This document shows positions 7,380 to 27,966 of a stretch of 53,800 bases of DNA, piece by piece. Numbering within the stretch: position 1 is the first letter of the stretch; the number at the start of each line of letters is the position of its first letter. A program made the translations under genes and the position numbers. Under the pieces are notes generated by a model. The model saw only the letters and a program-made list of their open reading frames with translations. It was not told the origin of the DNA and ran no database searches. Origin of the DNA: a virus; the IMG/VR virus record IMGVR_UViG_3300031963_000202, positions 1 through 53,800 of that record; one strand, 5' to 3'.

Positions 7380-8045
7380 ATGACAACCCCTTCAAGTATC
7401 ATCAATCGCTTCTCAAAGTTAGCGACTGACCCGCTACGCTCGTTCCGATTTTATGCACAGTTTACACCCGCAGCAGGTGGCGCACCGTTCACTGATAAAA
7501 TCCTAACTGGCTCAAGCACAGAACCAGCAACCTCTGGTGTCTCTACTAGCTGGATTGGCGGTTTCTCACAAATCTCTGGTCTAAGCATTAACACACAGTC
7601 AATCCAGTACCGTGAAGGTGGCTACAACACCACTGTTCACCAGGTACCAGGTATGACTACTTTCAGCCCAATTACTATGCAGCGTGGTGTCCTTTACGGA
7701 AACGACCAAGCTATTACTTGGATGCGTGGACTGTTTGCTACATCTTCAGGTGAAGGTATTGCAATGCGTCAGGCTGGAGTGGACAAGAACTTCCGCGTAG
7801 ACATCACTGTCTATGTTATGGACCACCCAAACACTGCTACAAACGCAGCAACCACAACTGTAAATGACAACACACCACGTATGGGATTCAAGATTCATAA
7901 CGCTTGGATTACTACGCTAAACTATACAGACCTAAATGCTGCTGACGGAGCGATTCTTTATGAGTCAATGTCACTAGTTCACGAAGGTCTATCAGTATTC
8001 TTTACTGGTGATGATTACAAGCGTAAGGATACTGGAAAGCTTTAA
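7380..8045 (+). CDS. Tail tube protein (gp19-like)
   Basis: 221 residues. The DPLRSFRFYAQF start, GGFSQISGLSINTQSIQYREGG and the PGMTTFSPITMQRGVL strand pair are the hallmarks of gp19-type tube subunits that stack as hexameric rings inside the sheath. Good ribosome site (GGAG) before ATG 7380. It lies between sheath and chaperone genes, the canonical order. Confidence 0.95.
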   Translation: MTTPSSIINRFSKLATDPLRSFRFYAQFTPAAGGAPFTDKILTGSSTEPATSGVSTSWIGGFSQISGLSINTQSIQYREGGYNTTVHQVPGMTTFSPITMQRGVLYGNDQAITWMRGLFATSSGEGIAMRQAGVDKNFRVDITVYVMDHPNTATNAATTTVNDNTPRMGFKIHNAWITTLNYTDLNAADGAILYESMSLVHEGLSVFFTGDDYKRKDTGKL

Positions 8046-8066: not shown

Positions 8067-8861
8067 ATGTCAGACATTATTACCGATGCACAATTACTAC
8101 AACAGTTCGCTGAAAAGATTTCAGAGGAGCCCGCGCCGAAGATTAAGACGCGGGCGCCTTCTGAGTCAGAGGTAGAACTGCCTGGTGGTTTTGTTGACCT
8201 TAAGGGTGAACTGCACACTTCGGCAGAGGTTAGGGAACTAACAGGAGCAGATGAAGAAGCTGTAGCTAAGTCAGGCTCTTCAGGAAAAGCTCTTAACGTT
8301 CTACTAGCCAGAGGCTTGGTTAAGCTTGGAGACAAGGAAGCCACAGCCGACGACCTAGATATGCTGCTATCGGGAGACCGTGACGCAATCCTTCTAGGTA
8401 TTAGAAGAGTTACATTTGGACAGACATCTAACCTAATGGTTAAGTGTTTCTCTTGCCAAGACGAGCATGAGACAACAATTGACTTAACAGAAGATGTCCC
8501 TGTTGTTAGATTGAAAGACCCAGTGGGAGACCGCGTATGGGTTATGGATACTAAGCAAGGTCCAGTAACTGTGGCTCTTCCAAACGGAATAACACAAAAA
8601 AGGCTGATGGAAAACTACGACAAGACATCAGCTGAGATTAATACACTCTTACTATCTGGATGTATTGTTTCAATAAACGGTGAACCATCTGTTGGAGCTG
8701 GTACTGCACTATCCCTTGGTATGGCAGACCGCACCCGCGTAATCGACGAGATTATCAAACGCAACCCAGGCCCTCGCCTTGGGGAGGTGAAGAAAGCTTG
8801 CAAGGCATGCGGTGAAGATATTTCTCTACCGCTTAGCTTGCTAGATTTGTTTCGTATATAG
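8067..8861 (+). CDS. Tail assembly chaperone / T4 gp26-like baseplate-hub assembly protein, zero-frame product
   Basis: 264 residues. The protein has a disordered N-terminal third, a helical centre (MLLSGDRDAILLGIRRVTFG) and two Cys pairs, CFSC near 128-131 and CKAC near 248-251, which probably share one zinc. This layout resembles the gp26-type baseplate family and fits the chaperone that sits between tube and tape measure genes in myoviruses. Beyond its stop a second frame stays open and is conserved-looking (see 8854-9009). The stretch TAATAGGAGTAT before ATG 8067 recurs before the SpoVS-like gene at 37372. Confidence 0.8.
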   Translation: MSDIITDAQLLQQFAEKISEEPAPKIKTRAPSESEVELPGGFVDLKGELHTSAEVRELTGADEEAVAKSGSSGKALNVLLARGLVKLGDKEATADDLDMLLSGDRDAILLGIRRVTFGQTSNLMVKCFSCQDEHETTIDLTEDVPVVRLKDPVGDRVWVMDTKQGPVTVALPNGITQKRLMENYDKTSAEINTLLLSGCIVSINGEPSVGAGTALSLGMADRTRVIDEIIKRNPGPRLGEVKKACKACGEDISLPLSLLDLFRI

Positions 8862-9009
8862 CGAACCAGATTACGAAGAGCTACTTGACCAGTATGAAGT
8901 TCTAACAAGAGCTTTTACTGGTTGGACACTCGCAGACATACGCGCCTTATCAGTTCGTGAAAGACAGAACTGGTTAGAACGTTCCCAACGATATCAACCT
9001 AGAGGATAG
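8854..9009 (+). CDS. Probable +1 frameshift extension of the tail assembly chaperone
   Basis: The +1 frame is open only from 8845 (a TAG lies at 8842-8844) to the TAG at 9007-9009, and contains no ATG, GTG or TTG, so it cannot start alone. It encodes VYSEPDYEELLDQYEVLTRA, then FTGWTLADIRALSVRERQNW, a protein-like sequence resembling second-frame domains of tail chaperones. At 8850-8853, UUU C lets a Phe tRNA slip from UUU to UUC, skipping one base. The fused protein would have 313 residues. Frameshifting is inferred; the frame geometry is seen. Confidence 0.75.
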   Translation, partial: VYSEPDYEELLDQYEVLTRAFTGWTLADIRALSVRERQNWLERSQRYQPRG

Positions 9010-9011
9010 TG

Positions 9012-11285
9012 ATGGCAAGAGAAGACCTTAACATGGGTAGCTCTAACGCTGCCGCGTTTATCTCATCCCTAAGAACTGGCCTGTCCTCACTGCGACAGGA
9101 GATGAACCTCCTAAAGCAAGACACGGGAGGTTGGTCAAGCCTACTCGGTGGAGCGATGGGAAAGCTGGGTGGCCGCGGCGGTGGTTACGGACAGCCTGGT
9201 AACAATCTTGTTGCTCCTGTACCAGTATTTAATGTAACAACCCTAGGTGACACATCACAGGGTTACATGTACGAACAGTCTGGTCATAACCGACTGTTTA
9301 ATGCTCCTGGTATAGAACCATACCGCCCTCTACCTACATACTACACAGGCGCACCGACAGGTGCGGGTGGTGGCGGTGGGGGCATGTCTCCTGCTATGCA
9401 GCGCGGTTTAATGGGCGGTGCTGTTGGTGGTATAGCTGCAATGCCTACCGCAAAAGAAGCTGTTGAATATGAACTTGCTACTCAAAGAATGGTGTTCTAT
9501 CAACAGCAAGCCTCTTATCAGCCTGGTGGAAGAATCAGACCTTTCTCTAATTTAATCCCAGGTAACCCAGACCCTAACAGCGACTACGCAAGAGCAACTG
9601 CTCTACTCCAACAACTAGGACGTAGTGGAACAACTACAGGTAAGTTTGACACTGTACAAGCAATGGAAGCTGCACGACAGCTTGGTATTGGTGGACCTAA
9701 CTTTGCAAGCGTAGCGCTAGGCACAGCGCAGATGTCTAACATCACTCCTGGTATTGGTGTTGAAGGTTCAATGAGAGCATACGGCGCACTACAACAGGGT
9801 CGTAACGTTAATATGCTTCGCGGTATTGGTATTCGTATTCGTGGTGAAGATGGTTCTATGAAACCTATGCCACAAATTATTGACGAAATTTGGTCTAAGT
9901 TAATGAGAGAAAAGATGGGTAACGAACCCATCACTGTACAAGATGTTCAGATATCTCTACAGCCTGGTAACGCTCTTGCATCTATGCTTGACCAGTACTT
10001 TGGAAACGACCCGTTACTTCGTAAGCAAGTAGAAGATGGACTTATGCTTAAAGCCAGAAGCGGCGGTGTAGGGTTTGCTGGTAGAGACCTTAAAAAACTG
10101 GGAGAAAAATACGGAGCTACTACACCTGCAGTCAGCTCTTTAAGTCAGAGAATTACTGAGTCTACTAGAAACTTACAACAAGCAGCCCCCGCTATGTCTG
10201 ACGCGTTTACAGCAGCGAACCGTGTTGTTAGTTACTTCACTGGATTTATGAATTTAATTGATAGGTTTACTGGGTTGTTCTCTGGGTTAAGCGCAATTAA
10301 AAGCGGCGTTACTACGCTGGGGTCTAGCGGTCTTGGCAGTATCCTATCTGGAGCTGTTAACTTTGCTGCGGGCCCACTGCTAGGCGGTTTGCTTGGCAAC
10401 ATGTTTAAAGCAGAGGGCGGACCTGTTGGTGGAAAGATGCCATATGTTGTAGGTGAGCAGGGTCCTGAGCTATTCGTCCCTGAACAGCCAGGCATTATTG
10501 TTCCTAACCACGAGTTAAAGAACCACCCATTCCGACATGCGGGTGGCCCTGCATACCCAGGACACCCACACAATGGGGAGTTTACAGGACCTAAGGGTTC
10601 TGGAGCACAGCAGTTAAGCCCAGATGAGTTAAAGAAAGTTTTAGAAAGAGCAGGATTTGAAGGACAAGGATTAGCAAACGCATTAAAAATTGCGGGAGCT
10701 GAATCTGGTAGACGCCCATATGCATTTAACCCACACGGTGGAGACCTCTCTTATGGTCTATTCCAAATTAACATGCTCGGCGACCTTATGAATGAACGCC
10801 TAAATAAATCTTGGAAAGCTGCAGACGGCAAGACTTTTAAACTAGGTTCAGTAAATGACCTATATGATGCAGAGACAAACGCACGAGTTGCCTATCACAT
10901 GTCTCAAAAGGGTTATAACTGGAGCTCTTGGTCTACTAAGTCTGTACTTGGTAACAACAATCCAGAAGGTGAGGGTGGTTCAGATAGGTCTACTTTTGCC
11001 TCTGCCTCAAAGAACAAAGGCGGGGATGATACAAAGTTTAGTTGGTCTAAGTTGTTCACTCAAGATGGGACAAGTAACAAAAACTTAATATCAGACTTAC
11101 TAAAGGGCTTTACCTCTATGTCAAGCCCAGCATTAAAGACTACATCTCAAGTAGGCGCAACCACATACAACTATGGCGGTGTTACCGTAAACCTATCAGG
11201 TGGAGGAAGCCCATCAGACAATATTGCAGCCCTAAAGGCGGCTCTATCAAACTCAGAGACTCTAGATAAGGCGGCTAAAAACTAA
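9012..11285 (+). CDS. Tape measure protein with C-terminal lytic transglycosylase-like domain
   Basis: 757 residues from ATG 9012 (GAGGA five bases upstream; GTG 9009 is an alternative). The N-terminal half is helical and Gly/Gln-rich; residues about 440-475 are Gly/Ala-rich and hydrophobic. GEQGPELFVPEQPG near 480-495 is the common C-terminal tape-measure signature. Residues about 540-650 form a lysozyme-like domain with AESGRR (catalytic Glu near 563) and SYGLFQIN. The protein sets tail length and probably helps the tail penetrate peptidoglycan. It overlaps the next gene by one base. Confidence 0.9.
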   Translation: MAREDLNMGSSNAAAFISSLRTGLSSLRQEMNLLKQDTGGWSSLLGGAMGKLGGRGGGYGQPGNNLVAPVPVFNVTTLGDTSQGYMYEQSGHNRLFNAPGIEPYRPLPTYYTGAPTGAGGGGGGMSPAMQRGLMGGAVGGIAAMPTAKEAVEYELATQRMVFYQQQASYQPGGRIRPFSNLIPGNPDPNSDYARATALLQQLGRSGTTTGKFDTVQAMEAARQLGIGGPNFASVALGTAQMSNITPGIGVEGSMRAYGALQQGRNVNMLRGIGIRIRGEDGSMKPMPQIIDEIWSKLMREKMGNEPITVQDVQISLQPGNALASMLDQYFGNDPLLRKQVEDGLMLKARSGGVGFAGRDLKKLGEKYGATTPAVSSLSQRITESTRNLQQAAPAMSDAFTAANRVVSYFTGFMNLIDRFTGLFSGLSAIKSGVTTLGSSGLGSILSGAVNFAAGPLLGGLLGNMFKAEGGPVGGKMPYVVGEQGPELFVPEQPGIIVPNHELKNHPFRHAGGPAYPGHPHNGEFTGPKGSGAQQLSPDELKKVLERAGFEGQGLANALKIAGAESGRRPYAFNPHGGDLSYGLFQINMLGDLMNERLNKSWKAADGKTFKLGSVNDLYDAETNARVAYHMSQKGYNWSSWSTKSVLGNNNPEGEGGSDRSTFASASKNKGGDDTKFSWSKLFTQDGTSNKNLISDLLKGFTSMSSPALKTTSQVGATTYNYGGVTVNLSGGGSPSDNIAALKAALSNSETLDKAAKN

Positions 11286-27733: not shown

Positions 27734-27806
27734 TGCCCCATAGCTCAGTTGGCAGAGCATCGCACTGTTAATGCGAGTGTCCCTGGTTCGAGTCCAGGTG
27801 GGGCAG
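27734..27806 (+). tRNA. tRNA-Asn (anticodon GTT)
   Basis: Acceptor stem TGCCCCA (27734-27740) pairs with TGGGGCA (27799-27805). The D arm has AGCTCAGTTGG, the anticodon stem TCGCA/TGCGA encloses loop CTGTTAA, and the T loop is TTCGAGT. No CCA is encoded. It starts right after the helicase stop. Confidence 0.95.
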
Positions 27807-27810
27807 CGAT

Positions 27811-27886
27811 GCGGTTGTAGCTCAGTTGGTAGAGCGGCACCTTGCCAAGGTGCAGGTCGCGAGTTCGAGCCTCGTCAACCGCTCCA
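27811..27886 (+). tRNA. tRNA-Gly (anticodon GCC)
   Basis: Acceptor stem GCGGTTG (27811-27817) pairs with CAACCGC (27876-27882). The anticodon stem GCACC/GGTGC encloses TTGCCAA. After the discriminator T, CCA is encoded at 27884-27886, unlike the other two tRNAs of the cluster. Confidence 0.95.
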
Positions 27887-27887
27887 A

Positions 27888-27959
27888 TCTCCCTTCGTCT
27901 AATTGGCAAGACTGCGGATTCTGGTTCCGCCTATCGAGGTTCGAGTCCTTGGGGGAGAG
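27888..27959 (+). tRNA. tRNA-Gln (anticodon CTG)
   Basis: Acceptor stem TCTCCCT (27888-27894) pairs with GGGGAGA (27952-27958, one G-T pair). The anticodon stem GCGGA/TCCGC encloses TTCTGGT. The T arm is intact and no CCA is encoded. It decodes CAG, a frequent codon in these genes. Confidence 0.93.
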
Positions 27960-27966
27960 CTTTACA

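What the first reader, a model, noticed from the sequence alone, without database searches (positions are those of the whole stretch)
8845..9009. Probable +1 programmed frameshift in the tail assembly chaperone gene
The zero frame ends at 8859-8861. The +1 frame is open only from 8845 to 9009, has no usable start codon, and encodes a 51-residue protein-like sequence with no other explanation. UUU C at 8850-8853 lets a Phe tRNA slip from UUU to UUC. Tail assembly chaperones of many phages use frameshifts, mostly -1; -2 and +1 cases are rarer, so this one would be of interest. The fusion would have 313 residues and add the second-frame domain to a zinc-ribbon protein.
Basis: partly seen in the sequence, partly recalled or inferred. 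Interest (0 to 1): 0.75.

Follow-up and report, generated by a model that had tools for sequence, protein, structure and literature searches.

The report
+1 ribosomal frameshift in phage tail gene
This phage very probably makes a longer version of its tail-assembly helper protein by letting some ribosomes skip one base at UUU-C, a site kept in every intact relative examined and the same site influenza A virus uses, which makes a proposed class of frameshift signals testable in bacteria.

Summary
The finding is real. Window 8067-8861 encodes a T4 gp26-type tail assembly chaperone (Pfam T4_baseplate) between tail tube and tape measure genes. UUU_CGU lies at 8850-8855, the zero-frame stop one codon later; the +1 frame runs on to 9009 without a start codon. 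In 153 distinct homologous junctions (71 below 85% nucleotide identity; proteins down to about 31% identity) all keep UUU followed by C, a zero-frame stop 6 or 9 nt after UUU, and an open +1 domain. UUU holds even in GC-rich loci that prefer UUC. The +1 domain is under purifying selection (pN/pS 0.26) and resembles the frameshifted domain of phage P2 E+E'. Best explanation: +1 programmed frameshifting, P-site tRNA-Phe slipping from UUU to UUC, giving short and long chaperones. The site (UUU_C, CGN preferred) is that of influenza PA-X and amalgaviruses; I also see UUU_CGC in haloarchaeal virus chaperone genes, and a -1 arrangement at UUUUUUCG in T4-like cyanophages, KVP40 and Atu_ph07. No stimulator was found; no fusion peptide has been seen. 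Chaperone frameshifting is known; UUU_C as a deeply conserved +1 site in bacterial phages appears new, but one key paper (Vladimirov 2022) could not be read.

The parts
7380..8045 (+). tail tube gene upstream (context)
   Evidence: phrog_4542 tail tube protein, E 2e-21
8067..8861 (+). zero-frame gene: short chaperone TAC-N, 264 aa, T4 gp26-type with split CxxC pair
   Evidence: PF12322 T4_baseplate E 3e-8, above curated cutoff; phrog_150 in 57 of 57 members; AlphaFold model pLDDT 89, best viral matches T4-like baseplate hub assembly proteins
8847..8855 (+). shift site UUG_UUU_CGU (E, P and A site codons at the moment of slip)
   Evidence: UUU_C in 71 of 71 representatives; CGN in 57 of 71; UUG or CUG in 62 of 71
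8850..8853 (+). slip tetranucleotide UUU_C: tRNA-Phe moves from UUU 8850-8852 to UUC 8851-8853
   Evidence: invariant in 153 distinct junctions; synonymous UUC never seen although it is 60% of other Phe codons in these ORFs
8859..8861 (+). zero-frame stop TAG
   Evidence: stop 6 nt (40 reps) or 9 nt (31 reps) after UUU
8854..9009 (+). +1-frame extension, C-terminal domain TAC-C (51 aa) with stop
   Evidence: pN/pS 0.26; PF06528 Phage_P2_GpE in 23 of 61 members at E below 1, best 0.0046; hhalign with P2 E' E 8.4e-5; three-helix model pLDDT 86.5
9012..11285 (+). tape measure gene downstream (context)
   Evidence: phrog_10574 tail length tape measure protein E 1.2e-6
8763..8789 (+). block of near-invariant synonymous codons 60-87 nt before the slip site, containing GGAGGTG; relation to the frameshift unknown
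   Evidence: codon conservation in 30 freshwater-clade representatives; single occurrence in the window

Best explanation
The gene at 8067-9009 encodes a tail assembly chaperone made in two lengths. Most ribosomes stop at 8859 and make TAC-N (264 aa). A minority, with tRNA-Phe in the P site on UUU 8850-8852 and CGU waiting in the A site, slip forward one base so that the tRNA pairs with UUC 8851-8853; translation goes on at GUA 8854 and yields TAC-NC (313 aa) with a P2 E'-like C-terminal domain. By analogy with lambda G/GT and P2 E/E+E', TAC-N would bind the tape measure protein and the C domain would recruit tail tube subunits. Shown here: invariance of the slip tetranucleotide, selection on the +1 domain, absence of a conserved start, gene neighbourhood and family matches. 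Inferred: the slippage itself, its direction and efficiency, and the chaperone function.
For: UUU_C in 153 of 153 distinct junctions with a complete homologous end, from 31% to 100% protein identity and in both AT- and GC-rich viruses; in 23 GC-rich loci the other Phe codons are 27 TTT to 147 TTC, and expected TTT at the site from each ORF's own usage is 34 of 71 (sequences not independent). Second frame open in all, 69 of 69 complete ones at least 40 codons. pN/pS 0.26 in the +1 frame. No start codon in the window and many relatives. Second domain like P2 E', which is itself made by frameshifting. Same UUU_CGU shown to shift +1 in influenza by peptide sequencing (PMC3498833). Same layout in isolated Streptomyces phages.
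Against: No protein evidence. No stimulator found: no SD-like element just upstream, no conserved downstream structure, CGU is not rare in this phage (17 per 1000). UUU_CGG occurs early in the tail tube gene of several relatives, so UUU_CGN is not by itself strongly disruptive everywhere. L271 lacks the junction and Listeria LIS04, a distant relative, has the +1/-2 frame without UUU_C.
Confidence: 0.92

Rival explanations
1. -2 frameshifting into the same frame, as in phage Mu.
For: It reaches the same frame; a natural -2 case is known in phage Mu's chaperone gene (PMC3498833).
Against: None of the P-site codons in the window's overlap re-pairs acceptably two bases back (UUU to UGU, CGU to UUC, AUA to GUA). 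-2 would not explain why the C after UUU and the UUU spelling are invariant.
Confidence: 0.03
2. The second frame is a separate small gene started from a non-standard codon or by translational coupling.
For: Several relatives have a TTG, GTG or ATG upstream of or inside the frame, and Streptomyces phage records annotate the second part as a separate hypothetical protein.
Against: Window and many close relatives have none; 14 of 71 representatives have none that leaves 20 residues. Annotated starts cut off the conserved first residues. It does not explain invariant UUU_C.
Confidence: 0.03
3. Sequencing or assembly indel, or a decayed gene.
For: A frame break in a single metagenome contig is a common artefact.
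Against: Same arrangement in 153 distinct junctions from independent assemblies, isolated phages and bacterial genomes, with purifying selection on both sides.
Confidence: 0.005
4. Transcriptional slippage instead of ribosomal slippage.
For: Would also give two products from one gene.
Against: Needs a long run of one base; here only three U in a row, and in most relatives likewise.
Confidence: 0.01

Closest known systems
Phage P2 E / E+E' (Phage_P2_GpE) chaperone frameshift
   Same: two-length chaperone before the tape measure gene; C-terminal domain matches by profile
   Different: P2 shifts -1 (annotated in the record); its N part is not the T4 gp26 type
T4-like TAC genes gp26/gp51 and relatives (Vladimirov et al. 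2022, cited in PMC12846349)
   Same: TAC-N belongs to the same Pfam family PF12322
   Different: T4 uses two separate genes; P-SSM2, S-SM2, KVP40 and Atu_ph07 show a -1 arrangement at U_UUU_UUC
Haloarchaeal myovirus HSTV-2 chaperone (+1 'very likely', PMC5009743)
   Same: +1 second frame before the tape measure; I find UCC_UUU_CGC in HSTV-2 and AAG_UUU_CGC_AGA_UAG in HRTV-8 and Hardygib1
   Different: neither half matches Pfam; archaeal hosts; whether its shift site was already named in print could not be checked
Influenza A PA-X and amalgavirus UUU_CGN +1 sites (PMC3498833)
   Same: UUU_CGN, P-site slip UUU to UUC, no evident stimulator
   Different: eukaryotic ribosomes; E-site UCC in influenza, UUG or CUG here; other C-starting A-site codons are tolerated here
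Bacterial RF2 (prfB) and Listeria PSA +1 frameshifts
   Same: +1 direction on a bacterial ribosome

Membership tests
Tailed-phage chaperone genes expressed by frameshifting (lambda G/GT type) | location between tail tube and tape measure genes | tested here: met
Tailed-phage chaperone genes expressed by frameshifting (lambda G/GT type) | conserved overlapping second frame without its own start | tested here: met
Tailed-phage chaperone genes expressed by frameshifting (lambda G/GT type) | sequence or fold similarity to known chaperones | tested here: met
   T4_baseplate and P2 GpE matches; HK97 chaperone 2ob9 is the top PDB match but not significant (E 1.1)
Tailed-phage chaperone genes expressed by frameshifting (lambda G/GT type) | minor long product made by frameshifting; short product binds tape measure | not testable with these tools
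   needs proteomics and binding assays
UUU_CGN class of +1 shift sites | UUU_C in the P site with CGN in the A site | tested here: met
   window and 57 of 71 representatives; UUU_C in 71 of 71, with CAG, CAA, CTC, CTT or CCG in the rest
UUU_CGN class of +1 shift sites | +1 direction proven by junction peptide | not testable with these tools
   shown for influenza (PMC3498833), not here
[quoted passage not shown]
   A-site codon is CGU, stop one codon later; no SD-like sequence in the 30 nt before the slip site
-1 heptamer (X_XXY_YYZ) frameshift | slippery heptamer and a -1 open frame | tested here: not met
   -1 frame closes 44 nt after the stop in the window and is not conserved

The most novel reading that the evidence does not exclude
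UUU_C, best with CGN behind it, is an intrinsically +1-prone sequence that viruses of bacteria, archaea and eukaryotes have recruited independently, without rare-codon starvation or RNA structure; and within the T4-type chaperone family the same UUUCGYAU bases serve a +1 shift in one branch and a -1 shift in another, so the direction of frameshifting flipped during evolution.
Probability: 0.45. Interest if true: 0.78.

Novelty: new variant of a known kind. Interest (0 to 1): 0.62.

Why it matters
It extends the UUU_CGN class of +1 frameshift sites, proposed in 2012 from eukaryotic RNA viruses, to a large family of bacterial phages that includes isolated Streptomyces phages. Because CGU and CGC are ordinary codons here, the rare-codon idea offered for influenza can be tested cleanly in bacterial translation. 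It also explains a small 'hypothetical' gene, or an empty gap, before the tape measure gene in hundreds of viral contigs, and shows T4 gp26-type chaperones using the opposite shift direction from their cyanophage relatives.

Tried and rejected
Genome-wide avoidance of UUU_CGN: once in 15,371 window codons against 12.8 expected looked striking, but pooled relatives show that T-ending codons before C are depleted in general, so it is not used as evidence. Downstream RNA structure: the window has a hairpin at 8887-8923 (z -2.95), but pairing across homologues is barely above shuffled columns (80.9% against 79.3%) and RNAalifold finds nothing. Rfam: no match. Promoter scan near the site: nothing. 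Fold search of the +1 domain: no significant match. Solved-structure sequence search with the fusion profile: none. T4 gp51 C-terminus against the +1 domain: only weak similarity (hhalign E 0.014, probability 3%). L059 has an early zero-frame stop, but the junction on the same contig (L147) is intact.

Full report
Observation. The zero frame 8067-8861 and the +1 frame 8845-9009 are as described. The slip site sits in GAT TTG TTT CGT ATA TAG. After a +1 slip on UUU the product is 313 aa. The window is a 53.8 kb virus record. The gene lies between tail tube and tape measure genes.

Conservation, near clade. A first scan of viral contigs gave 80 loci. Two are cut by a contig end; L059 has an early zero-frame stop, but the same contig read as L147 has an intact junction. 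In the other 77 and the window, the zero frame ends one or two codons after the slip-site CGN codon and the +1 frame continues. In 46 distinct sequences TTTCG is present in 46 and the preceding codon is TTG in 45; many second frames, the window's included, contain no ATG, GTG or TTG.

Conservation, wide. Scans with profiles led by the window and by Streptomyces phage BRock brought in soil viruses and loci in Saccharothrix, Streptomyces and Terracoccus genomes, with zero-frame identity to the window down to about 31%. Every one with a complete homologous gene end has zero-frame TTT followed by C, and a stop that begins 6 or 9 nt after it; L271 is the one exception, with a different gene end. 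After removing duplicates there are 153 distinct junctions and 71 representatives below 85% identity. Their A-site codons are CGC 34, CGT 15, CGA 6, CGG 2, CAG 6, CTC 4, CAA 2, CTT 1, CCG 1. So UUU_C is the invariant and CGN a preference. The sequences are related, so the counts are not independent trials; still, in the 23 GC-rich loci the other Phe codons of the same ORFs are 27 TTT to 147 TTC.

Selection. Across 22 representatives pN/pS is 0.26 in the +1 domain, 0.33 in the zero-frame gene, and 0.96 and 2.11 when the +1 region is read in the other two frames. Variation in the +1 frame is concentrated at third codon positions.

Families and fold. TAC-N matches PF12322 T4_baseplate above its cutoff and phrog_150. 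All 57 fusion members match phrog_150, and two match phrog_508, tail assembly chaperone. The +1 domain matches Phage_P2_GpE weakly but repeatedly and P2 E' itself by profile comparison (E 8.4e-5, probability 60%). The AlphaFold model of TAC-N (pLDDT 89) best matches T4-like baseplate hub assembly proteins (E 2.8e-21); in the PDB the top match, not significant, is the HK97 tail assembly chaperone. The +1 domain's top viral match and one of the strong TAC-N matches come from the same phage, Myoviridae ctgXL3.

Mechanism. UUU to UUC is the one re-pairing in the window's overlap that improves codon-anticodon fit. Influenza PA-X uses the same UUU_CGU and was shown by peptide sequencing to shift +1 (PMC3498833); that paper proposed a class of UUU_C sites with CGN preferred, all its examples being viruses of eukaryotes. 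No stimulator was found here: no SD-like element just upstream, no conserved structure downstream. CGU is common in this phage, so slow decoding through rarity is unlikely. Genome-wide depletion of UUU_CGN turned out to be a general codon-context effect.

Context. The review PMC5009743 states that chaperone frameshifting is widely conserved except in T4 and is very likely +1 in haloarchaeal HSTV-2. [quoted passage not shown] from memory it assigns gp26 and gp51. I find T4-like relatives P-SSM2, S-SM2, KVP40 and Atu_ph07 to have a -1 arrangement at UUUUUUCG; Bacillus phage SP-15 and Streptococcus phage GXN1 to have a +1 frame with UUU_CAC and UUU_CGU; uncultured phage LR756508 a +1 frame with UUU_CUA; Listeria LIS04 a +1/-2 frame without UUU_C; and haloarchaeal HSTV-2, HRTV-8 and Hardygib1 to have UUU_CGC. 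The shared UUUCGYAU bases, read in swapped frames in the -1 and +1 branches, suggest a change of direction during evolution; the protein alignment does not fix base-level homology there, so this stays a suggestion.

Novelty. Chaperone frameshifting, +1 included, is a known kind (PMC5009743; PMC10885494 used 350 forward sites in its phage training set). A search of open papers for UUU_CGU with phage and frameshift returned only the influenza paper. I therefore call it a new variant of a known kind.

Verdict. A real, deeply conserved +1 frameshift of a known functional kind with an unusual site. The slippage and the long product remain to be shown at the bench.

Noticed in passing
L277, L278, L279, L280 (P-SSM2, S-SM2, Atu_ph07, KVP40), end of gp26 gene: All four end in TTT TTC GTA/GCA stop with a chaperone-type second frame in -1, a classic U_UUU_UUC arrangement; the bases resemble the +1 site of the window with frames swapped.
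   Followed up: partly
L281 15440-15515, L282 about 1040-1053, L283 about 1040-1053: Haloarchaeal virus chaperone genes carry UUU_CGC in the overlap with their +1 frame: UCC_UUU_CGC in HSTV-2, AAG_UUU_CGC_AGA_UAG in the other two.
   Followed up: partly
window 8763-8789: Nine codons (NPGPRLGEV) with almost no synonymous variation in the freshwater clade, containing a GGAGGTG anti-SD match, 60-87 nt before the slip site; not conserved in the Streptomyces/soil clade.
   Followed up: partly
L081 4848-5030, L082 4872-5027, L083 4755-4952: Streptomyces phages BRock, LuckySocke and GiJojo annotate the second frame as a separate hypothetical protein with an internal start; these look like unannotated frameshift products.
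   Followed up: yes
window and G001, G003, G004, G006, G007, G010: Asp codon GAT is almost never followed by a codon starting with C (75 GAT to 1143 GAC before C, against about 60% GAT before A or G), so GATC seems strongly avoided in this clade, as if under restriction pressure.
   Followed up: no
window 27734-27960: Three adjacent tRNA genes: Asn(gtt), Gly(gcc), Gln(ctg); none is Phe or Arg.
   Followed up: no
L271: Streptomyces sp. AP-93 locus with a homologous N part but a different gene end and no UUU_C junction.
   Followed up: no
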